Position numbers and translations under genes: made by a program | Part shown: positions 44-51,600 of the stretch, piece by piece | Position numbering within the stretch: the stretch's first letter is position 1 | How the letters are laid out: every line of letters begins with the position of its first letter | Notes under the pieces: generated by a model | What the model was told of the DNA's origin: nothing | Database searches by the model: none | The model's input: only the letters and a program-made list of their open reading frames with translations | Source of the DNA: Gonocerus acuteangulatus | Lineage: Eukaryota > Arthropoda > Insecta > Hemiptera > Coreidae | Reading direction: 5' to 3' | NCBI GenBank assembly: GCA_946811695.1 | Contig: OX328124.1 | Span: 30,188,148-30,252,147 of the forward strand | DNA: 64,000 nucleotides

Positions 44-160
44 TTAGCTGACGAAGGCTACCAAAGAGTAGACGAAACACCCTTAATATAGATTTTTTAC
101 AAAAATCGTATTGATGTTTTCTTAGCCGATTGCTTATCACCTCGACGGCTAACTATCTAA
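44..160 (+). mobile_element. Diverged Penelope-like element 3' end
   Basis: This stretch aligns by eye with the outer end of the PLE-derived palindrome near 49.2-49.33 kb. Both have TTTAGCTGANGAAGGCT, then a short stem, then GACGAAAC or GTCGAAAC, and about 90 bases later CGGCTAACTATCT. No coding part is visible, so it is an old 3'-terminal fragment inside the HMG-CoA synthase intron. The CTGANGA...GAAAC arrangement resembles a hammerhead ribozyme core (see findings). Confidence 0.5.
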
Positions 161-513
161 TCGTCATCATAAAATATTTAAATTGTAAACGTTTTAATTT
201 GCTGGGCAAAAATTAATATGTTATTAATTAACTACATTCTATTTTATTTTATTAGAACTAATCTTCTTCTAGATGATCAATTTTTTATTTGTGTACTCTG
301 TTATAAACAGCTGATTGATAGAATACTATCTCTCTATTGTTGTCCCAATTGTAGGAGAATATTCGGTTTTGTATAATTAGGCTGTATTAATGCTGTAGTA
401 CATTTTTTGTCTCTTGAAGAAGCACGTGATAGGATGCAAATAATGTAGAGCTTGTTTAAATAAATTAATTTACATTAGTAATTATATTTTTATTGACCTA
501 GTGCTTGGCATTT

Positions 514-764
514 ATATATCATCGATACAAATGCAAAGTATTGATTGTGAAAAAACGCAGGTTGCATTTTCAATTTTTCTGATTCCAGTTGTATGGCAAA
601 CTCTCAAAAATTAGAGGAAAATAATTATCAATTACATAAAATCAAACTAAGGAATGTACATTGTCTAATTAAAAAATATCATAGGATAAAATATATATTA
701 AGTCATCTGTAAGATACCAACCACTTTTCACATTCGATACTTTGCATTTGTATCAATGATATAT
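514..764. mobile_element. MITE with ~40-bp terminal inverted repeats
   Basis: The left end (514-553) and the reverse complement of the right end (724-764) match over about 40 bases with few differences; both contain GATACAAATGCAAAGTAT. The roughly 250-bp unit has no coding capacity. It lies in the intron before the HMG-CoA synthase exon. The superfamily is not assignable from what I see. Confidence 0.6.
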
Positions 765-963
765 TGGATTGATACATTCACAATTAAGAAGTCATATATT
801 TTAAAAAGCATAAACTCCATCTTAAAGCAATAGAATAACAATAAAAAATCCCTTTACATTGTATTGTCAGCCCAAAATAATACCACATAAATTTATGCAT
901 TGACCAAATATAATTAGAAAAATTTGGATCACTTAAAGATTTTTTTTTTTGTTTTGTTTCTAG

Positions 964-2003: not shown

Positions 2004-5000
2004 CGTTTGCCATCAGCCATATTTCACTTAGCTTGTTTCATCGTGGCCTTATGTAAACAATATTATGAAATGGTGCTTTAATATATTTGTAAAATTTAAA
2101 GCAATTTAAATCAAACATTTTCTACCTTAACTGTTTTGGACGTTTTTAAATTTCAGCTCAGATATTATAAATATGATATCAGTACGTAACTCTCTTGTAT
2201 GTTAGTTTGAGTGCATACATACATAGAGTAAACATTAGTAATAGAGTAAAAAAATAGAATTTGCTGTTTGATAAATGCAATTAAGTTCTCCTTTGTTGTG
2301 ATTTTTTATACTTTTATGATTAAGCTCACAAAAATGAAGTATACAATAATTTTTGTTAAAGTTTGATTTTATCTAAAAGAACATCTACGTGAAAGTTCTT
2401 TCCACAGTAACATTTTGGAGATCGTAATAAATTTGTTGATAGGTGTATTGTAAGAAATTGTATTGTATATGTGTAGTTAAAACAGAATTTGAAAACAAAC
2501 ATTTGGTATAATTTCAAACTTTTTATATCATTGGTTATCATTAAAGAATTTTAGTAATTGTTTTACTAGAACAATGAAATTTCTGTTATTAATTTTTTTT
2601 GTCCGGAAATTTCTTTTTCTGCAAATATGACAAATCAATTACTATAGCTCCGTTTAATGTTCTCCAGAATTGCAGCTAACTTACTCAAATTGCTCTCATA
2701 ACCGTGCTCTCTGTTGGAATGTAACATTAAAAGTAAACATTTGCACCCAAAGAAACAGCAATACTGGAGAAAATTTCTGTTTTAAACTTTCTGCTTGCTG
2801 GTAAGAAACTACTTTGTATGATAATGGCTTTATGCAAAGAGAAATGTAATCAATAATTGAAAATTTATCATGTATGTCTCTGTTTGTTTGTTTTTTTTTT
2901 ACAAGGACAGATAATCTTAAACATTTTTATAAGAAATAACATTTTATACCTTGTTATGATTTACTCGCCATTGCACTTATTAAAAAATAAAGTGCTTTAA
3001 GTGTATGGGGCTTAGAAAATTTTACTATTACAATACTTCCTTAAAATTATTACTTTTAATTTTAATAAAAAAAAAGTCTGCCAGTGAACTGAATTGCGTA
3101 GTTATATTTTAATTAATTATTATGTTACTCAATTTTTCTTTTTGTATTTACAGTTATTTCCTGTAAAAATATATACTTATTTAAAACTGAATCACATTAT
3201 TTATGTTAAAAAAAAAAAATTGTCAAAACACAAATAATAAGGTATGGAACATGAGAGCCATTCTTATAATAATCTTTTTTTTTAGAAAATAAAATTCTTT
3301 TAAAAAAATAAAATTTCAGTATAAAATCATTTTAAAGTACCTCTAAATCACTTCCTTATTAGAGCCTAAATTTTCTCTAATTGCTACTAGGCCCCTAATA
3401 AAAAAAAAAAATACCTCAAGTGCAGTGTTAATTTAACCTTCTGTTTCTGCTTAAAAGAAATGTTTTTTTTTTTTTTTGTTTTTTTTTTTGAGACAACAGG
3501 AGAATCCATTCCATGAAAATCGACTCAATTTCATTCCTTTTAATTATTATTAATATCAATTTCAATATTCTTCGGATAAAAATAAATACAGTGCCTCAAA
3601 GATCTGAGAATGTTTTTAATTTAGTTAAATAGTTTTAAATCCTTTTTAATTTCTTTAAATATTTGGTTAGTTTTAGTTTGTTTTGTCTTCCAAAGATTTA
3701 TTTTATTTATTTGTTGTTATTAGTATATCTAGTTTTATTTTTTATAAAAGACCAATCAATATATTGTTTTTTTAATGTGATAGGAGAAAAAGTAATTTAT
3801 TAACACCAAATCATACATTCTTAAGTCAATTTTTTACTTAATTGGTTTTGGTTCTTATTTTAAATCATTGTGTCTAATTTTTTATTGTTATTTTACTAAA
3901 ATTTTAAGAAATAAATTTCCTAAGGATATTTCTTTTTTTTTTTTTTTGTCCTTTTCGAATTGTATGTTTTACTTGTTCTCCACAGACGCTGTTAATGAAA
4001 AGGAAATTTTAACAAAAGGATAAGACAATGCCTACACTTTCCATGGTAATGTAGGGATTTTTTCAGCAAGGTCATTGCTCAAAAAATTTAACCAGCTTCA
4101 AGCAGAATTCAAATATGGCAATACAGAGACGCCACAACACTAACCAGCAATCTGGTACATTTAACCTTATGAGACGGCAATCCACATCACTTTAGATGCC
4201 CGTGGAGGGGAGCCTGTTTCACCCTCCTTGCTTCAAAGGACGACATTAAAATAGCTGAGCTGCCCATCTCTTCTCTTTACTCCTAATACACTTTTGTTAT
4301 TTCTTTCATTTAAATGAAGTTTTCAGCCATCATTTTCACATTCTGGTCTTTGAACCAGTCAACGGCACTAAAAGCGTTTTTTTGTTTGTTTTTTAATTAC
4401 ATTTTTTAAAAAAGTTTTTGACATTTTAATAAAAAATAATATCGTCAAATATCTTGGTGTTGGTATAATATCTAGGGAATATGACCTCTATGTACACATC
4501 AATATCTAAAACATAAATAAAGCCCTCCAGAGGGATCCGAACTACGCAAAAGGACAAAGCAGCAAAAGGCAACCCCCATTAGATAGGCTCAAACTGCATT
4601 TTTATGAACTCAAGCGTTCATAAAGAGTGAGTTTTTTGAGACTCAAGTCAGATTACAAAACTTACAGCTAGATATCGCAAAAAGCTGTCACAGCAGTGGC
4701 TTTTAGTCCCAAAGCAAAGAAATCGCCTTGGCACAAAAGTGGCTATTACTCCACAGGACACGACGGCCTGTTACAAAAGTGGCTATCAGTCTCGAATGGG
4801 TAAACCATCCTCCCTCTGCGAGACCTGAACAGAATGGTGTTGCTAACAAGAGAAAGGATCAATATGGCAAAAATAAAAAATCAAGATAGAAAATTAATAT
4901 ATTAACTCTTTCTACATATTTACAAACAGAACAGATAAATAGAAACACACTGAAGAAGAAAGACATTAAATACCAGACACAACATGTTTACCAAAAATTC

Positions 5001-5234
5001 AAACACAACTCACTGTTTAAACATCTGTCTAAAAAACTATAATTGTTTATTAAGTACCTCGATGATTAATTTACCTTTAAAATTTTGCTATTAATAGTGA
5101 GAATTATTGTTCTTCGCCATGAATAATATTATTGAATAGAGGAATGCTTATTAAAAATGTTCTTTATAAGTACATTGCGAATGTACAGAAGTATTCTAAA
5201 GTATTTATCACTGTAATTATAAGTGATATTGTTA
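2004..5234. other. Intergenic region between convergent HMGCS1 and ERp29
   Basis: This is AT-rich sequence with many T and A runs, holding the 3' UTRs of both genes. AATAAA signals occur near 2425 and 2984 on the + strand. TTTATT at 5046-5051 is a minus-strand AATAAA about 185 bases after the ERp29 stop. Around 3960-4260 and 4440-4890 the base composition is less AT-rich and looks like old transposon debris. One reading near 4443 (VKYLGVGI) recalls a LINE reverse transcriptase C-terminus, but it is too decayed to assign. Confidence 0.6.
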
Positions 5235-8200
5235 TTATAATTCATCATGGCTTGAGAAAGACTGGAGGATGTTAACTCTTTCTTGCATTTCAGTCTGCTT
5301 CTCTTTATTTAGTTTTCCTTTCAGTATGTTCTCTACTCTAGAAGATTCATTAGTTATAAAATCAGGGCCTTTCTCAATCACTTTCCTCATTATCTGCAAC
5401 AAATGTCAGATATATTAAAAAAAGACATATTATTTCATAATTTGTTAGTGAATAGATAGGGAATGTATTTCTTAACTAAGACTCAAAATAGGTACCCCTA
5501 CACAAATTAAAATTTTTAATACCTAGGACAATATATACTCTCAGGGACTTAATTTTCAAATCTTTGTTTTTATTTTTTTTTAGAAAAACTAAATTCGCCT
5601 GGCTGGATTTGAATCCAGATCCTTCAGTTTTAAGCATGGTGTCTGTTTATTTTTCTTTTTTAATGATCAGCTTTCAAAAGAAAGTTCTTAAAAATAAGAA
5701 CAATTGTTCACACAATTAAGCCACTAGAAAAATTCAAGGTGGTTTTAACCCCTTGTGTATATTTGACAACTGAGGGTCGCCATGCATTTATCTTGCTTAG
5801 CTTACAGAAGGTGAGAAAGTCATCTCTCAAACATAAGCAGTATTATTAAATAAGTACATTTTTTTTCATGCAAGTTGATCAAATTTAAAAATAAATTAAC
5901 TTCCTGGGTGACTTCACAGTGTTGAGCATAGTCATAATTACGATTATGATTATAATCACAAGCTTTTGAGGTGTGATTATGATTAGGATTACAAAATGTT
6001 TTTCTCAGGGTATTATCATAATTTTTACCTTAACTCAGGAGTCAGTTCAATTAAATACGAGATAAGAATCCAGGAACTAGCCATGAGCTCGATCAATCCT
6101 CACCTCCTCAATCTCTCACACCTTCCTCACAGGAGTTCCTTAACAAGAAAAAGAAAGAAACTTCTTTCTAAACTTCGTTCTTGTCTATTCAGAAGGAAGG
6201 CATGGGTGAGTCTTGTGTGTCCGTGTCTTAGCCTGGCAATGATTACCTCTTCTCGTCGACAGTCTAGGGTCAATGAGCTCCATTTTTTGGTGTTTCTTTT
6301 AATCATTTTGAGCTTAATTTCAGGCAACTCCATCCACATATCTTGCCAGTCTTCTTTAATTTTACTTAACAGTGGTTTGGACAGCTCTTTGTGGGTAAGC
6401 ATTGTCGGCGTTGTGTTTCGCTTAGATGGTGGGCATTTTTTGCTGCCTTGTCGGCCGCTTCATTTCCCTTGACTCCTATGTGCGCCGGAACCCAAATGAA
6501 GGTAACTGTTTTGCCCATGTCGCCAAGCTCTTTGCAATATTTTTGTATTTTGTACGAATAGAAGTGTCTGGGGTACATTTTCCTTAAACTCTTTAGCGTG
6601 CTTTCCGAGTCGGTGCAAATTATAATGTTGGTTTTATCTGAGGACATAGAGAAGTAAAGAGCCGCAACAATTGCATGGGCTTCGGCGGTGAATATGGAAC
6701 ATCTTTCGTCGAGCTTGTATTTGTGTTCTGAGTCTAGATCCGTGAACGTGCATGCGGAGGATTCGGTTGATTTCGATCCATCAGCAAACAGGACGAGCTT
6801 GTGGGGTATTTCGTTTATTTCGCTGTGTAGAATAGTGTCAGGAGCTACAGCAGAATTCTGTCTCAATTTGAAACTGACTTGCGGCATTCGTAGGAGCCAG
6901 GGAGGAATGCTTTCTTCTTCAAAGGGTACGTTTGTTTCTATGAGTTCTTGAACTGCTGTTTCCATTCTTAAGGCAAGTGGCAGAGTCCCGTTTTCCTTCA
7001 TCCGATATAGCTGTTTATATTTTTGGTGATATAGATACCTGTAACATGGGTGGTTTGGCATTGTGTAGACTTTTGAAATATATTTTTTATGGCTACTTTA
7101 TTCCTCCTGAAGAGTAATGGGGTTTCTCCTGATTCTGCTGAAAGACTATGGACGGGGGTTGTACAGAAAGCACCTGTCGCAAGTCTCAAACTTGTGTTGT
7201 GTACTACGTCGAGAGTAGCCAGGACTGAGGCGTTTGCTGAGCTGTATACTTGGCTCCCATAGTCTAATTTAGAAGCTATTAGAGCATTATAGACCTTCAT
7301 GAGACTGCAACAATCTGCTCCCCTGCTGGTGTTGCTTAGAACAGAAAGTATTTTTATTCTAGCCATGCATTTATTTTTTAAATCCATTATATGTGTCCTC
7401 CATGAGAGTTTTTTGTCTAAAGTGAGACCCAGAAAGCGTTTTACTTCTGTATATTGGAGTGTAACTGTCCCCAATTTTATTGGAGGGCCATAGAAATTTC
7501 CTCTGAGTCGAGTGAAGTGCATGCATTGTGTTTTGTCGGCTGCAAAGGTAAAACCATTCCTCTTACTCCAGTATAAGAAGCGGTTAACTGTTGCTTGTAG
7601 GTTTTTCTGTATGTATTTTAAGCTGGTTGATCTACAGAGAATGGCAAAGTCGTCGGCATAGAGAAAGCCTTTTACTATGTTATTGAGAGTGTTTGTTATG
7701 CTGTTTATTGCTATACTGAAGAGGGTTGGGCTTAAAGCACTTCCTTGTGGGATGCCACATTGGGTCATTGTGGTTTCTGATGTGTTTCCTCCAACTATAA
7801 CCTGGAACTTACGGCCGCTTAGGAATTCTCTGATGTAAACTGGAAGCCTACCTCTAAATCCCCACTGAAGGAGTTGCCGAAGTATTGCGTGAGGCCAGGT
7901 CGTGTCGAATGCGTTCTTAATGTCGAAGAAGATTACAACAGCATGTTCCTTCTTTATGAACGCGTTTTGGAGTTCTCCTTCTAACATGACCAGATTGTCT
8001 GTAGCTGAACGTCCTTTCCTGAAAGCTGATTGCTGTTCTTGTAGGAGAAGCCGGTTTTCGAGCGTCCATAGCAGCCTCCTATTCGTGATTGGTAAAAGAA
8101 CAGTAAACACATTGAACGCTTTTGTATCAGGATGATTTCTAAGGACAGTTTATAGTTGTTATGGCCCAAGCAGAAGCAGTAGCAAACGTTGAGAAATTGA

Positions 8201-8447
8201 TGGCGTATTTTGAGAGTCAGGCCAAAACATTGCCAAATGAACTTCTAATGTTAAAGTGGATAATGCTGCTCGTAAGCGATACACTAAACTGAGACAGCAA
8301 AAGCTGGCTGCCTTTTTAGCACTTTCCTCCGAAGGAAAGTAGCTATTGAGGTTGGACTCATGACGAAATTTTTGAAAAATTTCTTCAAATCTTTATCGAT
8401 CCTACCTAGTAGACACCGAAAATGACCCCTGTTAAAATTTATATACA

Positions 8448-8495
<48 letters not shown>

Positions 8496-10276
8496 TATAT
8501 ATATGTGTCTACGATAGCGGCCAGAGTTTTTGTTTTTTCGTCACGAAACTTGGTATATAGCATTCAATTAGCAAACGATTGAACGAGTTCGTTAACCACC
8601 AAAGTCGGTCCACCGGAAGGGGGGGTTTACCCCGAACCCAAAACACTAATTTGACCATGTCAGCCGTAATATTTGTTATATTTCAACGAAACTTGGTATT
8701 CATAGTGGTAATATAGAGAGAAAAGTGAGATATAAAAATGAACTAAATCGGTTCATTAGGAGGGGGGGTTTACTCCGGACCCACAATACCAATTTGCCAC
8801 TACCAGCCGTGATTTTTGGTATATTTCGACGAAACTCGGTATTCGTAGTGGTAATCCACAGGTAAATATGTGTTGTAAAAATAAATTAAATCGGTTTATT
8901 AGGAGGGGGGGTTTACTCCGGACCCACAATACCCATTCGCCACTACCAGCCGTGATTTTTGGAATATTTCGACGAAACTCGGTATTCGTAGTGGTAATCT
9001 ACAGGTAAATATGTGATGTAAAAATAAACTAAATCGGTTCATTAGAGGGGGGGGGGGTTACTCCGGACCCAAATTCCTAATATACTCATACCGGTCGTAA
9101 TTTATGCTGTATTGAAACGAAACGCGGTATTTGTCGTGGGTAACTCATGAGAAAGAAGTGATGTAAAAATGAGCTGAATCGGTCAATCGGAAAGCGGGGG
9201 TTTACTTTGTAATATATTTCAATAGAAAAGCCCACCAGAGGTAGGTTCACTAAGCCGCCGCAAGGAGCGCTTTGTATCTAGAGGGACTGTATCCTGTTCC
9301 TGCGTTAGATCAAAATACGATAATATGAGGTTTTTTGTATTTATTAAGTAGTGTAGTAGGTACCATGTGTAAACATAACTCTGGAAGCAAATTAATAATT
9401 GATCAGTTACTCATTACACAATTAAAAGAGAACTATTCATGTTTTTATTTTATTTATGTAGGATATTTTAAGCAAATTGTTCTGGAAAGCAGTCTACACT
9501 ACCCAAATTCTGAGGAAAGTGCTTAGTTATGCAGCTCCTGTGTGACGGACTTTTTTTTACTATAGACTAGTTTGTAGCTATATTGTGTACAGTGCAAACA
9601 TAGGCTATTACAATACATACAGTATAAGTGTTTTTAAGTGAATGTGTGGATTTTCGTTAACTCGGATTGGCCCTGGTCCCAGTTGATCAGGGTAAACAAG
9701 GTTTTACTTTAGTACCTATTTTGTCCTTATAATTTGAATTTTATAAGTAAATGTAAGAACCTTAACAGGTATGTTTTTTTCTTTCTTTTTTGACTCCACA
9801 CCTCACTACTACAGTTAGAAATCAGTCTAAAACACATCAAATGTTGATGAATTTGCAAAAATATAGTATTAGCTAAGCATGGGTCTTCCCGTGGTCTAGT
9901 GGCTAATGCATAGGATTCTCAAGCGGGGATGGGGGTTCGAGTCCCACCTGCGCAAGGATTTTTCTCATTTCAGGGTGTGTTGAAAAAATTCCTTGCTGCA
10001 CCATGGATGTTTAGGAAGGATGGTAACCTGTAGTAGCCCCATGCTAATATCCTAGAGATGTCGGTGCGCAGTAAAAAAAAATGAGCGGGAGGTCTCCTCA
10101 AAAATTGAATGTGTTCTACAATATAAAAAAGTTTGGGGACCTCTGTTGTTCTTTACATCACTGTAAGCTTCTTGTTATCAAATCTGAAAATTCCATGCAC
10201 CTAAAATGACTTTTTCTTTTTTAAAGGTACTTTTGGTTTGGATATTAATAGAGTATTACCTTTTCCTAACCATGAT

Positions 10277-10346
<70 letters not shown>

Positions 10347-13300
10347 TTTACGGTACATCGAAAACTAGGCCATTAGCGCCGACATCCAGGGTGCAGCGAG
10401 GAATTTTCTCAACGAGCCATGAGATGAGAAAATTCCTGCCACCGATGGGGATCGAACCCACCATCTCTCGTACGTATATGAATCTAAGGCGTTAGCCACT
10501 AGACCATGGGGAGACCCCATGATGGGATATTTTTACTTTTTCTCAAAAGAAAATCAAAATTGTCTTTTATTCACACAACTGAACTAAATCCTTTGAAAAA
10601 TAACAATTAAAACTCACTTACTTTGACATAAGTTTCAGCAGATTTATTTTCTCTGTTTCCTTTGGCTTTATCCCACAAATCTTCTGCTTCTTTCAGAAAT
10701 AATTTCTTTTCTTCTACATTTTTTGCTTTAACAAAATTAGTCGCTATTTTATCAAATTCTTCTAAGCATCCTGGGAGACCAATATATACCTGGGATTTAG
10801 ACCTTCAACAAATAACCAAAACATTAGCTTAAATAATTATAATCTAAAAATGTATAACGGGCTTAGAGATTAGAACTATTCCATCTAAATGAACAAGTTA
10901 TACACTCAATGACACAAACCCAGTCTCTATAAACAAATAGAGTTGGAAATATAAATGAAAACCTTTTGTTAGTTGGCTAAAGACTTATTTCAATTTAATT
11001 AACACATCCTTAGGAATAAGAAGTTATTTTCAGGAACAATTGATTTTAAATATGACAATAACTCCCAATTACATAACTAGTTTAATGAATGCAAAGGTGG
11101 TGATTGTCGGGATTCAGTCGTTAGGTTAGTAAAATCTTCGCAATCTCAAAGTTCAACAATCTCTTCTCAATAATGTAAAGAATAATTATTTTTAAAATTT
11201 GAATCTCGGTATCCTTGAATGATTTTTCATTTTAAATAAATTAATATGAAATGTTTGTGTTTACGATTGTGGTCACTCTACCATTTTTTATATGGTTTAG
11301 AGTAGACCACTGGTGGTGAAGGACTGCAGAGATTTGTACATAGGTTGAATTGAAAATCAGGATTTATTCCAGAAATTATAATTAAATGGATGTGGGGGGT
11401 GTAGGCCAAAACAGGAACATATTTATTGTTATTGAGTTAGTTAAATTTTGAACATGGGAATGATGAGCTGCTGCTGATGGTTGAACTGTTGAATGGTTTT
11501 GCTGGATCTTCATAAATGATAAATTAAGAGAGGTACCTGGTGTCTTGAAGATTATGTGTTTAAGCATAATGTATAAGCCCTGTAATGTGCTGCATTTTCT
11601 TCTTGCTTCTCCAAATCATGGTGGGCTGGCTAACACCATGTCCTGCTCCCTTAGCTCGGCCTGGGTGGCTTAGATGTTTACTCCTCCATCATTGGTGTGT
11701 AAAACTTGGGGAGAGAAAAAAAGATGCTCCACACTTTGTCTGCTTGGTGACTATGCGACTATATCTTCCGAACTTGTCTTTTCGTGCAGTTCGTACTGCC
11801 GCGGGCAAATAGTTCCCGGGCACACCGCTAGGTGGCAGCACCTCACGGGGTATGATTCGTTGAGCGGCTTTCCGTGAACAAACCGCCCACCTAAATTAGT
11901 TTAAGCTAATTTACAATTCAAAAGAAAAATACAAAATAATACAATGGTACATGCAAGTTTGTTGATAAATAGTTCAACCTACAAATACAGTTTCACAGAG
12001 GTGAGAAAAGTATGTAAACAAAAATACAATAATGAGAATAAAAACTTCTAATATGTGGCGTTAAATAGGTGTACCAAATACAAATTGAAACTACTTCCAA
12101 AAAAAAAAATGTTTAAAATAAGGACAAAGTAAACAAATTCCATAATGAAGAATAATAACGAAAAGAAAAGAGCCAAATTTGGATATTCAACTAGCTGAAC
12201 GATCTTCCGTTTCAGCGTGAAATAAAGGAACAAGGGACGTAACTGCCCTAGTTAAAGTCTTGCCGGTGGGGGTTAGGACATCCACAACGCGAATGATTCC
12301 GTCGCGACCAGGGTAGGTGAATGTGACTCGTCCTTCGGGCCATTGTCCTAGGTCTTCTTTCCACAAGGACACGAGGTCTCCCGATTTGATGATGGGTTGA
12401 AATCTTCCTGGGTGAATTCTTCAATCTGCCGCCCACCCTGAGGATCCCCTGTTCGTCAAAGAAAGGACAGAGTTGGGCATAGTCTTTTGGGACTATTGGA
12501 CTGTTTCTGAAGAATTGTGGGAGTCGGGAGCGTTGTACGACTCGTGCCCATCTTAACTCTGCTTGTCTGTATTCTTCAGCAGATATGACGTCTGAACGAG
12601 GTTTGGATTTTCTCGAAGTGAGTCGGAGTATTCTGGCTGTGGTCCTTATCAACGTGTCGTATGAGGAGAATCGTGAGAGCCAGTCATCATCATGATTCTC
12701 GTCCGTGCGAGCGGCAGAAAGCAAGTTGACAGTTTTCTGCTCTTCATTTGACTCCAACCAGTCTGAGTGTGCTCGAAGCCAAGGAGGGCCATTCCACCAC
12801 AAATTTGACTCCTTGAGGGTGCGAGGAGAGCAGCCACGTGATGCCAGATCCGCAGGGTTGTCTTGTGAGGAAACGTGATGCCAACGATGAGCAGGAACCA
12901 CGTTCGTGATCTGCGAGACTCTGTTGGCTTCGAAAACCTTGAGCTCGTGAACCGGAGTTTGGAGCCAACCGAGGACTACTTGAGAGTCGGAGAAACACGT
13001 CACACTGGTGGCAATAGACTGCGGGACTGAGGATACAAGACGAGACAAAAGAAGAGCTCCGCAGAGTTCAAGACGAGGGATAGAGGTAAACTTTAAAGGA
13101 GCCACTTTGGTTTTGCCTTTGACAAGCGAGACCTTGACTTCGCCATCTGAGCTCATGGAGTGCAAGTACAAGGCAGCGCTGTACCCCTTTGATGATGCAT
13201 CACAGAAGCCAACCAAGCGGCGAACAGCTAGGGGTTCAGTGATGTGTCGTGGAATCGAGATAGAAGACAGGACTGACCAATCGGTTGTAAGTTCCATCCA

Positions 13301-16300
13301 GGCAGCTTGGAGATCGTGTGGGAGTTCTTCGTCCCAGTCGGTCTTCGCTTTCCAGACCTCTTGGAGCAATGACTTGGCGATGAAGACTACAGGAGCAAGC
13401 AGTCCAAGTGGGTCAAAGATACTCGATATTGACGACAGCATGTGCCGTTTAGTGACCGGACAAGGATGAGGGGGTTTGACCGAATAGGAAAAGGAATCAT
13501 TTGATGAACGCCAAAGTAGACCTAATATTTTGGTGGAGTCGTCGATTCTGATGGCTACAGATTCGCTATGTAGTTCTTTGGCAGGAAGAAGCATTGGTTC
13601 GGTCGAAGCCCACTTGCTGAGGGTAAATCCGCCTTTTGCGAATAAACCGCATAACTGGTTTTGAAGTAGAAGAGCTTCTTCTAGGGTGTCAGCTCCGCTG
13701 CACAGGTCGTCAACGTAGCAGTTCTCTAAAACGCGACTTGCGGCTAAGGGGAATTCTGACCCATGGATTTCTACAAGTCGCCTTACGGTTCGAAGTGCTT
13801 GATATGCGCTTGACTTAAGCCCATATGTTACGGTATTGAGCTCCATTACCTGAATTGCCTTGTTGGGTGAATCGCGCCACAGGATGTGCTGGAATTTTCT
13901 GTCTTCTTCGTGAACGACAACTTGGCGATACATCTTAACCATATCCGCACATAGAGGAATGGCATAGAGGCGAAAACGGATCAGAATGTTGCACAAATCT
14001 TCTTGAAGCTTGGGTCCCGATAGGAGTGCGTCATTGAGACTGTAACCTGATGACGAAGGGCATGACGCATCGAAAACTACCCTCAGCTTCATGTCGCCGT
14101 GGGGGCCCTCCTGCCAAACGCCATGGTGAGGGATGAGATACGAGGACTTAGTTGTTGCAGGAGACATGTGTCCGAGGTCCCTGTATTCCTGCATGAATTC
14201 GGAATATTTATGAAAAAACTCGGGATCCTTTCGGAATCTAGTTTCCAGAGCGTAGAAACGGCGGTATGCAATATCTCTGTTGTCGCCGATCGGAACGCCT
14301 TCCTTGAAGGGCAGTCTCACTATAAATCGTCCCTCGTCATCTCGAGAAAGTGTCTTCGAGTAAAATTCCTCGCAATAGGCATCTTCGGGGTCGGTTCGGT
14401 CAACAGGTTTGGGCTCTTCAATCTCCCAAAACAACTTCATATCATCCTCAATTGAATGATGCCTTTCGATAAAGAATGAGTGATGAGAAGTAGAGGGGTG
14501 ATCATTCAATGTGCCAGTGACAACGATTCCGAATGTGGTGGGCAACAATGACAAACCGTCGATGTCAGAGGGCTTGGATGCGCCTGAGATTATTTGATGG
14601 AAGACATCTCCTCCTAAGAGTATATCGATGGTTTTAGATTCTCCAAATTGGTGATCGGCCAAGGGCATGTCTAGAAGCTTGCTGGAAAGTGATGTTGGTA
14701 GGCTGATACTGGGCAAATCAGATGTAATGTGGTCAATGACCAACGGTGATACCTTCAACTCTTTGTCTCCAACGAGTGGGCGTAAAACGCAGTGTGTGGA
14801 TCCTTTTACTAGGTGCGCTGGTAGGGTTGATCCTGCGAGGCTTGTGATGGACACCTTGGAAGGGCAAATCTTAGCACCCATCTTCTTTGCGAGAGAGGAA
14901 GTCATGAAGGTATTTTGACTGCCCGAGTCGAGGAGAGCATGTGCGGTGTGGAAATCACCTCTTGAACCTCTAATCAAAGTGCGCACGGTTCCGAGGAGTA
15001 CGGTGCTCCTTGAGCATGATTTCTGGGCTGAGCCAAAACCGATGAAGGACTTGTCTTGAGTGTCTGCAACTGGAGATCGTCTTTTGTCATGAGCCGGTTC
15101 CTCATCCTTGGTGACTCCACGATCATCCCGATGGATCAGCGAATGATGTTTATTCCTGCAGTAGATGCAGCGAAATTTGGAACGGCAGTTTCCTACTCTG
15201 TGCCCTTTTTTTAAACAGTTGAAACACACCTTCCAAGAACGTATTATCGACGCCCGTTGCTCTACAGGAAGTTTCTTAAATCTTTCGCACTTCGCACAGG
15301 TGTGGGCGCCTTGGCAGAAAAGGCATTGAACGGGCTTAGGACTGGTTTCTCGGGACTTAGAACTTTGAGAATCCGAGGAATCGCTGCTGCTGTGAAATGA
15401 AACCGCTTTGTACCGCGAGGAGTTTCTGTTGGGGCAGCTAACGCTAGAGTTCGAGGAGGACCTACTACTTGAGCCTGTTCCTGATACATCCTGCGACATC
15501 TTGAGGGCAAGTTTCCTTTGGCGAATGAATGTTATTACGTCCTCAGTTTTCGGAAGGTCCTTGCTGGACTCTCGAGATAATTCGAATTGTTTCCTCGTTT
15601 CAGCGTCAAGAGCGCGCAGGGCTAATGTGGATAATATGAATTCGCAAGGATTCTCGAGTTTGAGAGCGTTAAAGGCCTCGATACTATCGGCAACGCCTGT
15701 AAGAAACCTATCATATTTCTGCTGTTCCGATTTGGCAGAGGTAACTTCACAATCCACGATGCGATGAACTAGAAGACGAGCTAATACTCGAGGGTTGTCA
15801 TAGGTCTTTGTTACCTTCTCCCAAGCTTGATCGTAGGACTCATCCGCGATGGTGAAATTGGAAACTAATGACGCGGATTCTCCTTTGAGAGCTGCTATCA
15901 GATAATGAAATTTCTCAATTTTGCTGAGAGATTTGCGATCGTGTATCATGGAGCGGAACGTGTCTCTGAAGTGGGTCCATTGCAGAAGGTCACCTGAAAA
16001 AGTGGGAATTGGGATCTTATCGAGCTCGGGACCGCGGGAGGTCATTGTTCGCAATTCGGTTTTTTCAGCTTTCCTTAAAGAGTCGCGGTCCTTGAGGGAG
16101 AGTAGAATGGCTTTAGCAGCGATAATTTCAGACCGTAGCTTGCTGTATACCGCATCCCAATCTTTATTAGGGAAAATATCGCTTTCTCCCAAAAGCAGAT
16201 GTAGTGAGTCGCGTTTGTCCCATGTGCAGCAGAATTCCTCCCACTCTTCCTTCGCGACGAGATATCTCGCCTCGAAGCTATGTATGTCGTCATCTGCGAT

Positions 16301-19300
16301 ATCGTTCAATGTAATGTCGCCGATTCCAATGATGTTGCGCTTTAAAAGGCGCATTTTGCGTTCAAGTGCGTTGGCTTGATTAATATAATCAGTGGATTTC
16401 GTCGCTTGACGCTTTTGAGCGTCATGATCTTCAGGCATATTCAAAACAAAAACAAAGCAGCCAACCAGATCGAGCAGGAGCGGAGCAAGGAGTTAGCCAA
16501 ACAAATAAAAGAATGAGAACAATAGAGCTAAAGGAAGAAGCAAGGATATAAATAGAGATAGAAAATGTTCAGGTACCAATAAGGACAACAAAATAAATAA
16601 AACTTGAAAAGAGAACGGGCTGAGCAGACGAAACATTAAAATAGAGTAAGATAATTGGATTACATTAGTACAACAGGCTAAGCTTAAGTCAATAAAACCA
16701 TTAAAATAATCAAAAGCATTTAAAACACATCATACATAAGGTGACTGTCACGAAAAGAAACCAAGGAGAGTGTGACGTCACGAGAGCGGGGTCACTGTAA
16801 CTAGACTTGATAACTACTACCTCTATGGACTGAGTCTAGGTGGAGAAACAGCTAGCTGAGCGAAGCCTCCCTAGTTTGAGAAAACCATGAGGATCAGTCA
16901 CAGTGGAAGAAGAATTGTGTTTTAAATAGGTGTTTATGTGTGGAATAACAAATGAATTGACTTTATGTGAAATAATAATAATACCTGTGTGATACATATC
17001 TAGAAAATAAAGATATAAATGATATTTATGAGAATCTTATTGTCTACCCAGCTCATTAATAAATGATTGAAGAACATATTGTAATTAAATTAAAAAATAT
17101 AAAGAATAAAATCTATAAGGTAATTGAGAGATGAACATGAGACAATAATATGAATAATTTAATAATATAATTGAATGTAAGTTCTCATGTTGGGCTAATG
17201 TCAATTACTTGAGTTAAATATGTCTTCAAACATTTACAGAAATTATTTAAACATTAAAATAGTCTAAGCAACACATTTGAAAAATGATCAAGTCTGATTT
17301 GGATCATGAAGAGAATTTTTAAACTGATTAGTTCATGATAATTAATACAAAATGGTATAGACTTGATGTGATTTGAAAATAATAATATTTGATAGCAATT
17401 AATTCACAAATCCATATCAATATATTTTTTATTGCCTGAATATGAGACTATTTTTACCAAAATTATGTAACTGATACAGATCTCTGCCCGGAGGACCATT
17501 GTTTATGATTTACTGGTACAGATCTCTGCCCGGAGGACCATGTTTACGATTGTGGTCACTCTACCATTTTTTATATGGTTTAGAGTAGACCACTGGTGGT
17601 GAAGGACTGCAGAGATTTGTACATAGGTTGAATTGAAAATCAGGATTTATTCCAGAAATTATAATTAAATGGATGTGGGGGGTGTAGGCCAAAACAGGAA
17701 CATATTTATTGTTATTGAGTTAGTTAAATTTTGAACATGGGAATGATGAGCTGCTGCTGATGGTTGAACTGTTGAATGGTTTTGCTGGATCTTCATAAAT
17801 GATAAATTAAGAGAGGTACCTGGTGTCTTGAAGATTATGTGTTTAAGCATAATGTATAAGCCCTGTAATGTGCTGCATTTTCTTCTTGCTTCTCCAAATC
17901 ATGGTGGGCTGGCTAACACCATGTCCTGCTCCCTTAGCTCGGCCTGGGTGGCTTAGATGTTTACTCCTCCATCATTGGTGTGTAAAACTTGGGGAGAGAA
18001 AAAAAGATGCTCCACACTTTGTCTGCTTGGTGACTATGCGACTATATCTTCCGAACTTGTCTTTTCGTGCAGTTCGTACTGCCGCGGGCAAATAGTTCCC
18101 GGGCACACCGCTAGGTGGCAGCACCTCACGGGGTATGATTCGTTGAGCGGCTTTCCGTGAACAGTTTGCTTAACACTGTTTGAAGTTTCATATTTATCTC
18201 AAAAATTATATACTCAAATTACCGTATAAATTTCTTCAAGTTGTCAGACGTGAAGTCTTTATCATCATTAGCAACAAATGTAATAGGCTCATTATTTTTG
18301 GTGAACAGCTTAACAGTTGGAAACTGATCTTTGGTGACTCCATAACGATTTGCAAGATCCTCATTGTCTTTTTCACCATAATCTTTTACCTGGACCTTTT
18401 AATTAAATCATTAGTACAGCAGAGTATTATTTAAAAAAAAAAAACTTTCCAAAAATGGCATTCAACATACCTCTCCAACTAATAAGTCTGGCGAAGAATA
18501 AGCTGCTTCACAAACAGCTTCAAAGGCATCATGTTTTGCTCCATAAGGGTAAGCAGTATCAAATTTAATCAATGCTGCCTCAAATTTTGAAGTGATCTAA
18601 ATGAAAATTAAAACAAAAAAAATATACCATTATTTTCCAAATAAAAATTCTATTTGGAACTTAAAATATAATATTTCACAGCATAATATAATGATACTAT
18701 TTTCTTCCAACTGATTTTTTTTACTGCAGTGTTGTAAATATTTTGATGAGCTTTCATCTGTATTTCAGCAAATTTCATCAGATTAACCATCTTTCGAAGA
18801 ATCACATAACTTTTCTTTTTAAATGCCAGAAAAAATGTTCTGTAAAGTTACAACAGTGATAAGGATTCCAAAACTAACTAATATAGTCCCTGGATACTTG
18901 TATTGTAAGTTGAATATCTAAGAGTGCGTTTTCATCAGACGCTTCTCGCAGGAAATATATCTCAGGTCTTATATATAATTATCATAATTACTATACCCAA
19001 CACTTGAGATATATTTCCTGCGAAGTGTTAGATGTAAACGCACCCTTATTGCTCGCGATAGAAATATGTATCTTAGACATGAATTGTTTACAGTTTACAT
19101 TTGCCACAATTTCTGTCTAACTGCATTAACTATCAGATGTAAACGGACTCTTAGAGGATGACTTTCCTTCAAAATAGTACTTACATTTTTTTAAGTAATC
19201 AGGGGAAGAGAATGTCAAATAAAATATTCTGAGTAGTAAAACAATTATCCAAATATTCAAATGGTTTAAGTGAAATAATGCAGATAACACATAAATTCTA

Positions 19301-21772: not shown

Positions 21773-22074
21773 TATATAACTGGCTAATAAGGCGGAAGGT
21801 CAATAAAATATCGCCACACACTTTTACACTTTTTATTTATCTTCCCTACATGTTTCGCACCCTTTATGGTGCCTCTTCAGGGGAACATTCTTAAACATTA
21901 CATTCAGCCTCAACCTGAGGAATGTTCCTCAGGTTGAGGCTGAATGTAATGTTTAAGAATGTTCCCCTGAAGAGGCACCATAAAGGGTGCGAAACATGTA
22001 GGGAAGATAAATAAGAAGTGTAAAAGTGTGTGGCGATATTTTATTGACCTTCCGCCTTATTCGCCAGTTATATA
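21773..22074. repeat. Near-perfect 302-bp palindrome of two PLE-like ends
   Basis: Arms 21773-21923 and 21924-22074 are reverse complements with only a few mismatches and essentially no spacer (centre GAATGTTC). Each arm contains CCTGAAGAGGCACC, a short loop, GGGTGCGAAACATGTAGGG. This is the hammerhead-like layout seen in the other PLE ends of this window. Confidence 0.85.
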
Positions 22075-22244: not shown

Positions 22245-22700
22245 CAAAATTCGTCGTATCTAACGAGTTCTACAGGATTATAATTGTCTCCTTTAGGCTT
22301 CCTCGATGGGGCTACATTCTTCTGGTCCCTCGGCTACTTTCTCCAGCGGTGTCGGATTCTTGCCCGTTATAATTCACTCACATCCCAGTGGGCTTCATTA
22401 GACGTTGGTCGAACTTGTCTGAGGTAGACAGGAGCTATGCCTGGCTCGCGCTCCTGCCGGCTTTTTTTAAAAAAGCCAGGCATAGCTCCTGCCTACCTCA
22501 AGAAAGTGCGACCAACGTCTGATAAAAAGCCGGCAGGAGTGCGAGCCAAGCATAGCTCCTGCCTACCTCAAGAAAATGCGACCAACGACGTCTGATGAAG
22601 CCCATTGGGATGTGGGTGAAATATAACGGCCAAGAATCCGACACCGCTGGAGAAAGAAGCCGAGGGACCAGAAGGAGGATTATAATTTTACAGGCACATG
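22245..22700. repeat. Imperfect fold-back with an internally duplicated right arm
   Basis: The left arm (about 22245-22465) pairs with the right arm (about 22466-22700). Both contain CGACACCGCTGGAG or its complement, and CAGGAGCTATGCCTGGCT-like sequence near the centre. In the right arm a segment of about 95 bases (CATAGCTCCTGCCTACCTCA...) is present twice. The outer part carries GTCTGATGAAGCCCATTGGG then GTGGGTGAAAT, again hammerhead-like. Confidence 0.75.
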
Positions 22701-22749
22701 TAATTAAAAAACAATAAAAACAGAGAAAAATTAACACAAAGGACCGAAA

Positions 22750-32221: not shown

Positions 32222-32274
<53 letters not shown>

Positions 32275-35047: not shown

Positions 35048-35098
<51 letters not shown>

Positions 35099-41698: not shown

Positions 41699-41740
<42 letters not shown>

Positions 41741-45685: not shown

Positions 45686-48600
45686 ATGCCAGGTCCAAAA
45701 TGCGTTGTTGAATTTTGTAATAATAATGGCTACAGGCCCAAAGGAGAAGGCAAAAGTGTTGCATTTCACCGGTTTCCTAAGGATCCTGGTAAGTAATTCT
45801 AATACCCGTTCTTTTTAAATTAAAGACTGTTTTTAGGGTTATAAGAATAAATAAATTATTGCCATCTGCAGTGTTATTCAGAATATATTACTGTAAATAT
45901 TAAATGCAATTCTGCCAGCCACTGTAGTTTTTAGAGTTTTATATTACTTAATACATGTACCAAGCAGACATTTTTATGACTATGGAATCCCTCTATCTAG
46001 TATAGACATATGATCCATTCTCAAAAAATAGAATTTTTATCAACTGCCAAAGCCACCAAGCTTTGAAATAAGCATGCCTCAGGGATCAATAGGAAAAGAG
46101 TACTTTATATTTTTATCATTACATTGGTCTTTGCCAACTGTTTTTTTGCCATATTTTATTTATTTAAATTTTAACGTCCATTTATTATTAAAACTGCCAT
46201 ATTTTTGTTTCTAATCGAAGAAGTTTTATTTCTAAAATATTAGTTAAATTCTTAGAAAATATTTTCTATTCTTGATACTATATTTCAATTAAGCACTATT
46301 TTGTTTTGTGTGTGTAAATATATTTATGCATTTATATATGTGTATATATATATTTGCAATAATGTATACAATAAGTAGTGAAGGGGTCTCCCCATGGCTA
46401 ACACCTTAGATTCATATATGGGAGATGGTGGGTTCGATTCCCACCGGCGGCAGGAATTGTCTCATCTCACGGCTCGGGAAAATTTCTCACTGCACCCTGG
46501 ATGTCGGCGCTAATGGCCTAGATGTCGATCTGCTCTTCTGTGTTACTGACAAATGAGGCAGTGTCATGATAATACAATAATTACTGTCATGTTATTTGGT
46601 TAGCCATTCTATCGTTTGAAATGGATCGGAAGAAAGATATTGGCAAGTACGTCTTGGAATCCTGAATAAACAAATATATTTACAGATGATTTAAGGGGAC
46701 TTTTAGTATTACCATACAGCTATGAATCAGTGAAGAATGTTTTTTCATATGAGGTCCTGGCATATATCGTCATATACTAATGGAAAATATAAAAGCTTTG
46801 AGGAATATTCTGTGTTAATGTGTGTTTAATGGCGTATTGAAAATTTGGCTATTAACGCCGGGCTATCTACAGGTTGCCACCCATTTTCCAATAGCACATG
46901 GTCGGTCACTCATTCAGGTACTGGCCACACCCGACGTTGCTTAACTTCGTTGATCAACGGGAACTGGTGCAGTCAACACGGAACAAAACTTATTGAATCA
47001 AAATTTTAATGAGACATCAGTACTATCTGATCTGAAGAAGCAAGAGAATTGAAATGGGTAATTTAAGAATACATTTTTTTTTGTGTGATCAAACGGCATA
47101 TCAACACTTGGGCAGTTAACGCAGGGCTGTCTATAATTTACCACCCTTTTGTAATGCCATCAGCACGTGGTCGGTCACCCATTCAGTTACTGGATGTTGC
47201 TTAACGTTGGTGATCAACAGGAACCGGTGCATTTAACGTGGCTATAGCTGTTGGCTGACAAGTCTAATGTTTGCAAGGTTTAGAATTTGGAAAACACATG
47301 TGAATCCATTGCTTGGCAATAAACTTATTTTTACTAATTTTAACTTACAGAAAAATGTATTATAAAGAAGTAAGTAATCTCAGAAATCTCAATTATTTGA
47401 TAAATAAGAAGAAAATACGAAGACAGGTATAGTTGGGATTCGGCTAGGAGAAAAACGTCAGACTTTCAAAAAGAAATCTGTATTTTGGACGTTTCGACTG
47501 CAACAATGGCAGCCTTCTTCAGCTAAAAAATATATACAACTTATAAGTAAAGAAAATGTACAAGTAGTAAGTAAAAGACAGGAAGAAATGAGCGGGGTAT
47601 ATATATCAATACAATAAATTTTAACCAATCTTATTTTTAAAAACAATGAAAATACGGTAGTTGGAAAGAAAACAGCATGTAGAACTTGTTAGTAAAAACA
47701 GTACAAAAAAAAAAAAAAATTAAACAGTAAAAACAACGCACATTTTTTATGTAGTGAAAAACAAAATCTATTTTATAAGTGAATACAATTTATAACAATT
47801 AATATATAGATACATACCACTAGAGAATGCCTAGGGGGGGGGGAGGAAGACCTCGAGGACAACTTAGGTAACCATGGTAGAAGTATGAACGACAGCAACA
47901 ACACCGGTGGTCTTTATAATTATGAAAAAGGGGTGGGGGGCGGCAAATCGGTGCAGATGAAAGAGGTACAATTGCTGGGTTGTAATGGCGGGTTGTAAAA
48001 GGAGGTTGTAAAAGGTGTTAAGAGCTTTGGGACACTCAAGTAGAGAAATTGTCTGGAGCCTGGGAACAAAGATAAAAAAGGAGGTCAGGACAATTTATGG
48101 AAGACGGAGGAGTAAGCAGGGGAGATGTTTTGTTTGTCGGTTTTGTAATTAATGTTATTGGGGTTTAAGTTAATGTGGACGCATTCGGAAATCTGTCGCT
48201 TTTTGGTGTTTCGTTCTGTGGAAAGTATTTTAGTGTCGTCAAAGTTGAAAGTGTGTTTTTTTGTTATGGTGTGTTTTGCGAGGGCGGATTTGTGGATTTC
48301 TTTGTTTTTTATTGTCCGTTTGTGTTGTGTTATGCGGGAGTGAATATAATTTTTGGTTTCACCTATGTATACAGCATTACAGGAGTCATATGACTACGCC
48401 ACCCACGTTGTTTACCAAATACCCTGCCAAACCCCCTCCTGTAATGCAAAACACGCCATAACAAAAAAACACACTTTCAACTTTGACGACACTAAAATAC
48501 TTTCCACAGAACGAAACACCAAAAAGCGACAGATTTCCGAATGCGTCCACATTAACTTAAACCCCAATAACATTAATTACAAAACCGACAAACAAAACAT

Positions 48601-51600
48601 CTCCCCTGCTTACTCCTCCGTCTTCCATAAATTGTCCTGACCTCCTTTTTTATCTTTGTTCCCAGGCTCCAGACAATTTCTCTACTTGTGTGTCCCAAAG
48701 CTCTTAACACCTTTTACAACCTCCTTTTACAACCCGCCATTACAACCCAGCAATTGTACCTCTTTCATCTGCACCGATTTGCCGCCCCCCACCCCTTTTT
48801 CATAACTATAAAGACCACCGGTGTTGTTGCTGTCGTTCATACTTCTACCATGGTTACCTAAGTTGTCCTCGAGGTCTTCCTCCCCCCCCCCCTAGGCATT
48901 CTCTAGTGGTATGTATCTATATATTAATTGTTATAAATTGTATTCACTTATAAAATAGATTTTGTTTTTCACTACATAAAAAATGTGCGTTGTTTTTACT
49001 GTTTAATTTTTTTTTTTTTTTGTACTGTTTTTACTAACAAGTTCTACATGCTGTTTTCTTTCCAACTACCGTATTTTCATTGTTTTTAAAAATAAGATTG
49101 GTTAAAATTTATTGTATTGATATATATACCCCGCTCATTTCTTCCTGTCTTTTACTTACTACTTGTACATTTTCTTTACTTATAAGTTGTATATATTTTT
49201 TAGCTGAAGAAGGCTGCCATTGTTGCAGTCGAAACGTCCAAAATACAGATTTCTTTTTGAAAGTCTTGACGTTTTTCTCCTAGCAGAATCCCAACTATAC
49301 CTGTCTTCGTATCTCTACAGCGGCTAACTATCTCCATCTACAATAAGTAGAAAATGTTGAAGCTGTAATGAGCTTTTGGAATTCTAGAAAACATATCCAA
49401 TCTCTAACTATTCTTAACAATTTGTTTAAAATAGAATTTAAACTCCGCACATTGAAAACATCTCTGCTGTTTTCCATTTTATTTTATATTCTAACAATGA
49501 AAGTGGTCAGTTTTGTTCAGTAAATCAATTGCAATGATTTAAGTTCACAAAATAAACTAAGTAAGTTCCACCATTTGTAATGACATTAATCCATTAATGA
49601 ATCACCTCCCTAATGAAACTAACTTGAACTACAGAGTTACCTAAGTACATGGAGTTGGAGCGATTTTCCTTCTGCCTTTCAAAATCTGTTCGGACATAAA
49701 AAAAATTGCTCTACTGTACTAGCTCATTGACAGTATAATGATTTGTTAATTAACTTTTGCTCACTTTCTAAGCAGTTTATCATACTACTTCAATAATGTT
49801 TCTTCGGATGTACTTTTTACGACATTAAAACTTGATAAATGTGGCTTGGATTAAGTTAACTGCTGTTACGTTTTCTTAATATTTTATGTCAAATGAATGC
49901 TTTTGTTTCTTATTATTTTATTTTGTTTTAAAATTCATCTGTATCTTGAGTGATAAGTAATTTGATTGGACATTGTGTTAAGTGCTCCCAGAGTTTTGAA
50001 TCGATAATTTTTTTTAAACAAATCATGAAATCATTGTTATTTACGCGAGTAAATTATTTCATTAAAAATTATGATCGCTCTCTGAGCAATACTTTTTTCA
50101 TTTAAAAATAACAATTCATTCATGGCCCAGAAAATTTTGCCATTTGCTTTTTTATCAAAAGAAAAAGAAAATCCTATGAGACATTTATTTATCATCTCTA
50201 ATTTTATTTTGTTTTTATTTATAACTCTTACTTTTTCAAAGGGTGGTAACCTATAGATAATCCTTCTTAAAATTCTTAGTTAATAAGAAATGGACATTAA
50301 AATTTAAATAAATAAATAACTCTTACTTTTTACTCTTAATTCCAAGTTTAGGAAAGAAAACATATTACGCACAAATGATTATTATTATTGCTCAAAGAAG
50401 TTTCACTCAGAAGGTATGGTTGACTCTTAATTTTGGTCAGTTTTGAACAAAAATAACAATCACTCACTTGATACAAATTTTAAAATTACCAGATAATAAT
50501 TATGATCGGATTTTATTTTTATTTATTAATTTTTAATTATCAGTTTTGAACTCCGCAATTTCCTGATGGGGAGGTTGTTAGTTTTATTGAAGTGCGATTA
50601 TTGTTAATTTAATTATTGAAGGACTATTTTCACTATAATTTATTGAATGGATTGAAATGACCTGCATTTTGAGTATCCCCTTTTTATTACACGTTTCTTC
50701 ATTAGTGATCCGTTCATTCTGTTTGATTTTAGGTTTGAGGGACGAATGGATTCGGAAATGTGGAAAAGAAGAAAATTTCAAATACGAATTTGCTTTTGTG
50801 TGTTCAGATCATTTTAGTACTGATGACTATAAGAGAGATATGCAAGCCGAATTGTTAGGCTATGTCGGAAGGAGAAAACTAAAACCCACTGCTGTTCCTT
50901 CGATCAACCTCCCATTTGAAGAAGAAGATTCTTTAACGCCCGAAGAAAAAGAAAAGGCAGAGAAAGAGAGGCATAACAAAATAATCCAAGACTGTTTGAA
51001 TGGTACAAATGAATATAAAGGAATTTTATCATTTGAAATGTTTAAAAAAATGAGATACAAAAATGCTCGGAGTAGAAGAGCTCGCTTCCAAAATGATCCA
51101 ACTACTCCCCATGTACCAGAAGTTTTAGTTCTGAAAATGTCTCCTGATGATATTGTAAACGATTATGAAATGGATGAAAATGTGACCGATCCTATTGATC
51201 ACAGAATTATTAATGTTAGTGGCTCAGATGATGACATTACAAGCTTTTCAGTGTTTTTAAATGAAGGTAAGGAAGGCTCAGCTGTTATGTTACCCAGTAT
51301 GAATTTTGATCATGGTTTAGTTTTCATATCCTTAGGACATGTTTATGTGTATACACTGATATATCTACTACCTAAAAATCTGTATAGTTTTGCACATTTA
51401 TATTCGTGTGTTCATTTGATTTTATCTCTTCCATTATAAAGAAGCACTAACCCGCAAGCATTTCTTTACCAATAAAAAAATGCTTTTGCATTTTCTTTCT
51501 TCCCAGTTAAAAAACGCAGAGAGCCAATTACAGAGAAGCACTTTTCTTTCACTTTAAAGTAATTTCTAATATTAAAAGTGATTTTGATGAGGATGAGTTT

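What the first reader, a model, noticed from the sequence alone, without database searches (positions are those of the whole stretch)
44..49312. Four PLE-like ends share a hammerhead-ribozyme-like core
Four ends show CTGANGA, one extra purine, a stem-loop, then GAAAC (GAAAT in one): near 50-90, in both arms of 21773-22074, near 22595-22640, and in both arms of 47415-49312. In the 21.9-kb copy, TTCCC before CTGA pairs with GGGAA after GAAACATGTA, giving stem I, and ACATGU gives a tiny self-complementary stem III ending in UA. In the 47-49 kb copy stem III would be ACGU followed by C. Known: type I minimal hammerheads occur in PLEs and can act as dimers through weak stem III. The extra purine after A9 departs from the canonical core and is shared by all four.
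Basis: partly seen in the sequence, partly recalled or inferred. Interest (0 to 1): 0.75.

Follow-up and report, generated by a model that had tools for sequence, protein, structure and literature searches.

The report
Hammerhead-like motifs at retroelement ends
The window carries old copies of Penelope-type jumping genes whose ends encode a small hammerhead-like, possibly self-cutting RNA with one extra letter in its core; this motif is very common in the genome, is a variant of a known kind, and may show how cutting is kept in check while the element copies itself.

Summary
Four ends (A 48-82, B 21847-22000, C 22592-22625, D 47488-49238) carry CTGANGA, one extra purine, stem II, then GAAA. 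Stem II fits only with the extra base: 97.2% of pair cells form in that register against 28.2% in the canonical one, with two-sided changes in 4 of 6 pairs over seven sequences. D is a GIY-YIG Penelope-like element (PLE); a sister copy has an 842-codon open frame between two hammerheads 3,576 nt apart. The D core has at least 2,020 near-identical places in the genome; a pattern without the extra base found 3. In 26 of 26 simple head-to-head D twins, one end has a ~32-nt tail and the other lacks it. The two ends lie 73 and 105 nt past the predicted cut, and none of 100 copies examined ends at the cut. PLE hammerheads, tails and inverted ends are published; the fixed extra purine and the strict one-tail rule look like additions, but the two key primary papers could not be read. 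Copy A and the left arm of C look dead; PLE identity of B is weak. Activity was not tested.

The parts
48..82 (+). A: degenerate hammerhead-like core of an old solo PLE end; extra A at 55; stem II has one G.A mismatch; GAAACACC gives no stem III (probably dead)
   Evidence: blastn to D; intact relative in L044
143..158 (+). A: tail remnant CGACGGCTAACTATCT, matching the D tail
   Evidence: sequence; L044
21768..22079 (.). B: near-perfect palindrome of two arms (97% over 312 nt), no tail difference between its ends
21847..21880 (-). B left arm hammerhead core; extra G at 21873
21967..22000 (+). B right arm hammerhead core; extra G at 21974; stem III ACAUGU; predicted cut after 22000
22286..22675 (.). 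C: head-to-head twin; left end with 33-nt tail (22286-22318), right end without
   Evidence: sequence
22366..22408 (-). C left arm, mutated core CTAATGA...GAATTAT
   Evidence: model match E 0.021
22592..22625 (+). C right arm hammerhead core; extra A at 22599; stem III AUAU; predicted cut after 22625
22274..22285 (.). C target-site duplication, left copy AGGATTATAATT (right copy 22676-22687)
47417..49345 (.). D: PLE head-to-head twin; left end short, right end with tail to about 49342-49345
47488..47522 (-). D left arm hammerhead core; extra A at 47515
49204..49238 (+). D right arm hammerhead core; extra A at 49211; stem III ACGU; predicted cut after 49238
48088..48393 (-). D left arm: C-terminal part of the PLE frame with the GIY-YIG residues (CNAVYIGETKNYIHSRITQHKR)
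48350..48637 (+). D right arm: same frame with an internal deletion across the GIY-YIG residues
47404..47416 (.). D target-site duplication, left copy ATAAGAAGAAAAT (right copy 49343-49355, ATAAGTAGAAAAT, one mismatch)
   Evidence: read

Best explanation
The four ends are remnants of insertions of Penelope-like retroelements (shown for D; supported for A; inferred for C; weakest for B). Each encodes, or once encoded, a minimal type I hammerhead-like ribozyme with one extra purine between A9 and stem II and, except in the decayed A, a 4-6 nt self-complementary stem III. In a transcript of directly repeated copies, two such motifs 3,576 nt apart could pair through stem III, or be helped by the PLE protein, and cut at GUC|C, releasing a unit-length RNA (inferred). 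Reverse transcription starts just 5' of the ATG, at two sites 73 and 105 nt past the cut (the ends of genomic copies; start sites inferred by analogy with the Anolis PLE), and reads back through the motif, so the template must be whole, or rejoined, across the cut (inferred). Both target strands are primed, one from the tail site and one from the short site, and the two cDNAs are joined head to head, giving twins with motifs on opposite strands (architecture shown, mechanism inferred).
For: Motif and chance expectation; covariation only in the +1 register; intact PLE frame between two direct hammerheads in L047, with invariant YVDD and GIY-YIG residues among ten aligned proteins, 612 protein relatives, RVT_1 in 5 of 5 and GIY-YIG in 4 of 5 relatives scanned; at least 2,020 genome places for the D core; twins with one tail and one short end in 26 of 26 simple cases, and 33 of 36 close neighbours in -/+ order; an Anolis PLE cuts and extends both strands, starts at two sites that bracket the tail, and its hammerhead is active only with protein (PMC11167929).
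Against: No cleavage data. Rfam gives no hammerhead. The D protein itself has no Pfam match at E<=0.1 and no PDB match at E<=1. Stem I of D is weak. Cofolding shows the stem III dimer for B but not for C, D, A-type or E. In the Anolis PLE, hammerhead mutants still insert and no RNA-seq reads end at the cut, so the ribozyme may have no role in insertion. That same work saw no strand difference in RT start site in vitro, which does not predict the strict one-tail rule.
Confidence: 0.72

Rival explanations
1. The motif is a structural or protein-binding hairpin of the PLE RNA (for example for docking the enzyme or choosing the start site) that has kept a hammerhead-like sequence by descent but is no working ribozyme, the extra purine having abolished or nearly abolished catalysis.
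For: None of 100 copies examined ends at the cut; the Anolis hammerhead is inactive without protein and not needed for insertion in vitro; stem I of D is weak.
Against: CTGANGA, GAAA and a self-complementary stem III are kept in families with different stem II sequences; the Anolis motif does cut with protein and depends on C3 and G8.
Confidence: 0.22
2. The template is a circular RNA: units cut out at two hammerheads are closed by a host ligase, and reverse transcription runs round the circle through the rejoined site, which also leaves copies unbroken at the cut.
For: Tandem hammerheads flank exactly one unit in L047; copies read through the cut; circular RNAs of animal retrozymes with type I hammerheads are known and PLEs are proposed as their helpers (PMC7229834 and PMC7761336, passages).
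Against: No circular PLE RNA shown here; whole tandem transcripts explain the same copies; unprocessed RNA was the main substrate for the Anolis PLE in vitro.
Confidence: 0.15
3. The motifs are chance matches of a short pattern.
For: The 18781- hit in the window is probably of this kind.
Against: 0.18 hits expected per window for +1; at least 2,020 genome places for D with 0 for the reversed pattern; covariation.
Confidence: 0.02

Closest known systems
Minimal type I hammerhead ribozymes of Penelope-like elements (Cervera and De la Pena 2014; Lunse, Weinberg and Breaker 2017; primary papers not held, known here from reviews and reference lists)
   Same: Position in pLTRs of PLEs, CTGANGA...GAAA core, reduced stem III, expected dimer action, huge copy number (the last from recall of the 2017 abstract).
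   Different: One extra purine after A9 in every family seen here; whether those papers already show it could not be checked.
Poseidon PLE of Anolis carolinensis (PAc; PMC11167929, main text read)
   Same: GIY-YIG PLE, hammerhead near the ORF start, two internal RT start sites that bracket a 30-40 bp tail, both target strands cut and extended.
   Different: In PAc the cut lies 26 bp after the start codon, here 105 nt before it; PAc showed no strand difference in start site, whereas twins here have one of each. The text read does not say whether the PAc core has an extra base.
Penelope elements of the rotifer Adineta vaga (PMC3846280, passages)
   Same: Inverted pLTRs head to head, a 31-bp tail at one of the inverted pLTRs, target duplications of 8-10 bp, palindromic junctions.
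   Different: Few copies there and the tail called optional; here one tail in 26 of 26 simple twins and duplications mostly of 12-14 bp. The paper proposes self-priming on an antisense template rather than priming of both strands.
Viroid hammerhead with an extra core nucleotide (De la Pena and Flores 2001; title seen in reference lists, one citing passage in PMC11014351)
   Same: One extra base in the hammerhead core.
   Different: A viroid ribozyme with full stems; the exact place of the extra base is from recall.

Membership tests
Penelope-like element, EN-positive (element D) | PLE-type RT with YVDD in the same frame as a GIY-YIG endonuclease | tested here: met
   L047 frame aligned with nine relatives, invariant YVDD and GIY-YIG residues; relatives match RVT_1 5/5 and GIY-YIG 4/5; no direct Pfam match of the D frame
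Penelope-like element, EN-positive (element D) | Direct or inverted pLTRs with optional tail and target duplication | tested here: met
Penelope-like element (element C) | Inverted twin, tail at one end, target duplication | tested here: met
   no coding part found
Penelope-like element (element C) | RT/EN frame | not tested
   no full-length C copy was obtained
Penelope-like element (element B) | Inverted twin with tail and target duplication | tested here: inconclusive
   palindrome found, no tail difference, at most ATATAT shared at the ends
Hammerhead ribozyme, canonical core | CUGANGA followed directly by stem II, then GAAA | tested here: not met
   stem II pairs only after one extra purine (28.2% against 97.2% of cells)
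Hammerhead ribozyme | Match to an Rfam hammerhead model | tested here: not met
Hammerhead ribozyme | Self-cleavage at the UH site | not testable with these tools
   needs transcripts
Dimer-type minimal hammerhead of PLEs | Stem III reduced to a self-complementary stub | tested here: met
   ACGU, ACAUGU, AUAU; not in A of the window
Dimer-type minimal hammerhead of PLEs | Two motifs in direct orientation in one transcript unit | tested here: met
   L047, 3,576 nt apart; direct neighbours were only 3 of 36 close pairs; none in the window

The most novel reading that the evidence does not exclude
The extra purine is a lineage-wide built-in brake: it keeps the PLE ribozyme nearly silent on its own so that the RNA stays intact across the cut, because reverse transcription begins 73-105 nt beyond it and must read through; cutting is licensed only by the PLE protein or by pairing of tandem copies. 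Together with the strict one-tail, one-short rule this would mean that the two RT start sites are assigned one to each target strand by an asymmetric pair of enzymes.
Probability: 0.25. Interest if true: 0.7.

Novelty: new variant of a known kind. Interest (0 to 1): 0.45.

Why it matters
[quoted passage not shown] This genome holds thousands of similar copies of one family, so two questions become countable: whether cleaved RNA is ever the template (so far 0 of 100 copies examined end at the cut) and how the two target strands are primed (26 of 26 simple twins have one of each end type). A fixed extra core base gives a single-letter handle for testing whether the ribozyme is held back on purpose.

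Tried and rejected
Rfam at both thresholds: no hammerhead in the window. Control: Rfam on 9 of the 15 IMG/VR loci that carry a loose hammerhead pattern gave 3 matches, none at the pattern sites, so Rfam silence is weak evidence. Of the 15 IMG/VR pattern hits, 14 have a +0 stem of 4-7 bp and one (L005) fits neither register; several are the same sequence, and the pattern favoured GG after A9, so this is a weak control. PLE relatives: none in viral contigs, one short match on a contig labelled Bacteroidetes in prokaryote genomes (L066, not pursued). The GIY-YIG fragment alone: no Pfam, no homologue within its length band. Single-core folding: z between -1.17 and 0.16, uninformative. Rejected: that the inverted arms act as a cis dimer (one sense motif per transcript). 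The model R1 scores the window sites well, but they trained it. The first genome pattern for B was mistyped with one G too many and gave 0, which says nothing about B; the corrected pattern did not complete. A genome-wide count for the general +1 pattern did not complete; the lower bound used is the D core, which allows substitutions but no indels. The +0 pattern required GGC after A9 and GYC before GAAACGTC, so it sees only D-, A- and E-like stems; 2 of its 3 places are one twin. The listings show only the first 100 exact matches, all on contig C1, so the twin and truncation counts come from one contig plus the window.
Full report
Setting. The window lies at G000:C5:30188148-30252147 of a genome of 1.1 Gb in 135 contigs. 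It carries an HMG-CoA synthase frame, a non-LTR-type RT and RNase H, a BEL/Pao element and a THAP-domain frame. The relatives of the PLE protein that bear an organism's name in the listed 120 are insects, so an insect host is likely; the species was not established.

The observation. A strict search for CTGANGA, 0-2 extra bases, a perfect stem of at least 4 bp and GAAA finds six hits, all with one extra base; 0.18 hits of that kind are expected from a first-order Markov model. A model built from seven cores (window A, B, C and D, plus cores of L022, L047 and L044) scores the window sites at E 2.8e-09 to 8e-07. Those sites trained the model, so this restates the alignment; sites outside the training set are the mutated left arm of C (E 0.021) and 18781- (E 0.0074) in the window, and weak relatives in other loci (L063 E 0.0045, L024 E 0.005).

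The extra purine. With one base between A9 and stem II, 97.2% of 36 pair cells are standard pairs and four of six pairs change on both sides; sliding the partner by 1-3 columns gives at most 48.5% of cells and a covariation score of 0.159 against 0.659. Stem II placed directly after A9 gives 28.2%. Six of the seven sequences had been picked for a stem in any of the registers +0 to +3 or +0 to +2, so the pairing itself is partly selected, the register is not. In 213,200 bases of own-genome sequence held at that point (overlapping loci counted more than once) there are seven distinct strict motif strings, 18781- among them, and all seven are +1 although 0 to 3 were allowed. One weak degenerate relative (L063:1863+) reads T at that place by eye. 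Of 100 exact copies of the segment 3' of the D motif, 45 have the exact D core; of the other 55, 48 have a complete core within two substitutions, with A as the extra base in 48 of 48, and none matches +0 or +2 versions (one of the 48, L072, looks disrupted by eye). Genome-wide, the D core with up to three mismatches has 2,020 places, a lower bound by the tool's own note, and the reversed pattern none. A +0 pattern that covers D-, A- and E-like stems has 3 places, two of them one twin.

Stem III and stem I. D has ACGU then C, B has ACAUGU then A, C has AUAU then A; all three are self-complementary. Stem I is 5 bp in B, 3 bp in C and E, and weak in D (G-C, A.A, three A-U). These are read from the sequences. 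In a cofold, B forms the stem III dimer; C, D, the A type and E do not.

The element. A 7.6-kb stretch with D copies (L047) has an open frame of 842 codons (817 from the first ATG) between two hammerheads in direct orientation, 3,576 nt apart. It aligns with nine relatives at 29-34% identity, with YVDD and the GIY-YIG residues invariant; 612 proteins match at E<=0.001. Pfam finds RVT_1 in 5 of 5 relatives scanned and GIY-YIG in 4 of 5, one of these below the curated cut-off, and nothing in the D frame itself. Both D arms of the window hold the 3' part of this frame and the pLTR. The predicted cut lies 105 nt before the ATG.

Twins. Among the first 100 exact D cores listed, 36 neighbouring pairs lie within 5 kb: 33 are -/+, two --, one ++, none +/-; both 3' ends then point outward. 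Of 29 -/+ pairs found in the loci examined I set aside three composite ones (L035, L047, L048). In the remaining 26 of 26, the window's own copy included, one end lies at element position 3570-3576 (tail) and the other at 3541-3551 (no tail). If tails fell independently and equally often at each end, the chance would be about 1.5e-8. The tail is on the left in 15 and on the right in 11. In 21 of 26 an exact string of 12-14 nt is shared at the two ends; one has 20, one 9, and three (the window's, L026, L058) have 6-7, which become longer by eye when a mismatch or ragged end is allowed. The unrelated C element shows the same plan: twin, 33-nt tail on one side, 12-bp duplication. B shows no tail difference.

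How it probably works. In the Anolis PLE the enzyme cuts and extends both strands and starts reverse transcription inside the RNA at two sites that bracket the tail; its hammerhead cuts only with protein, and hammerhead mutants still insert (PMC11167929, main text). The D copies fit: their ends mark two start sites 73 and 105 nt 3' of the predicted cut, and the copied sequence continues 5' through the motif into the 3' part of the frame. A template already cut would stop there. Of the 100 copies above, seven lack a complete motif; they break at scattered places, two of them (L098, L121) 6-8 nt before the cut, none at it (junctions read by eye). So these templates were whole, or rejoined, across the cut. 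The test cannot see cleaved RNA that is never copied. What the ribozyme is for remains inferred: separating tandem transcripts into units, perhaps after or beside reverse transcription. The extra purine may hold it back; a citing sentence says that an extra core base weakens a viroid hammerhead while being linked to infectivity (PMC11014351, passage). That analogy is an idea, not a result.

Comparison. Minimal, dimer-type hammerheads in PLEs are known (reviews PMC7761336, PMC6155905, PMC6466107, passages only; primary papers not held). Head-to-head inverted ends with an optional tail are known from Adineta (PMC3846280, passages). In the eight paper searches made and the passages read I did not see a statement that PLE hammerheads carry an extra base after A9, or that twins always have exactly one tail; since the most relevant papers are not held, this is no proof of novelty.

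Noticed in passing
L030, L042, L050, L051, L052, L061 (G000:C1): Six of the 26 twins are a short (about 390-nt) derivative with the same internal deletion (element 3148-3435) and similar inner ends, each at its own site with its own duplication: a small non-autonomous subfamily that still obeys the one-tail rule.
   Followed up: partly
48389-48400: The D twin is joined head to head at a perfect 12-nt palindrome AGTCATATGACT; palindromic junctions are reported for Adineta Penelope and bear on how the two cDNAs are joined.
   Followed up: no
L022:140- and L022:1027+: A B-like motif (GCACC...GGTGT, G-U closing pair, stem III ACATGT) in an inverted pair about 0.9 kb apart that surrounds no D copy: a second B-type family.
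   Followed up: partly
L047:4841+ and L024:497-538-: A further +1 motif family (E) with a 7-bp stem II and GCC/GGC stem I, one intact and one degenerate copy.
   Followed up: partly
12248-16444: Long open frame of a BEL/Pao-type retroelement on the - strand (Peptidase_A17, DUF1759).
   Followed up: no
6366-8110: Non-LTR-type RT and RNase H frames on the - strand.
   Followed up: no
8618-9206: Tandem array of a 143-bp unit, 4.1 copies.
   Followed up: no
10413-10472 and 46417-46476: Inverted repeat pair with a GGTTCGATTCCCACC-like stretch, perhaps tRNA-derived SINE sequence (SINE reading is recall).
   Followed up: no
L006:1318-1377 and 1810-1867 (IMG/VR): Two twister-P5 ribozymes about 0.8 kb from a +0 hammerhead-like pattern hit with a 7-bp stem II: a viral contig with two ribozyme classes.
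   Followed up: no
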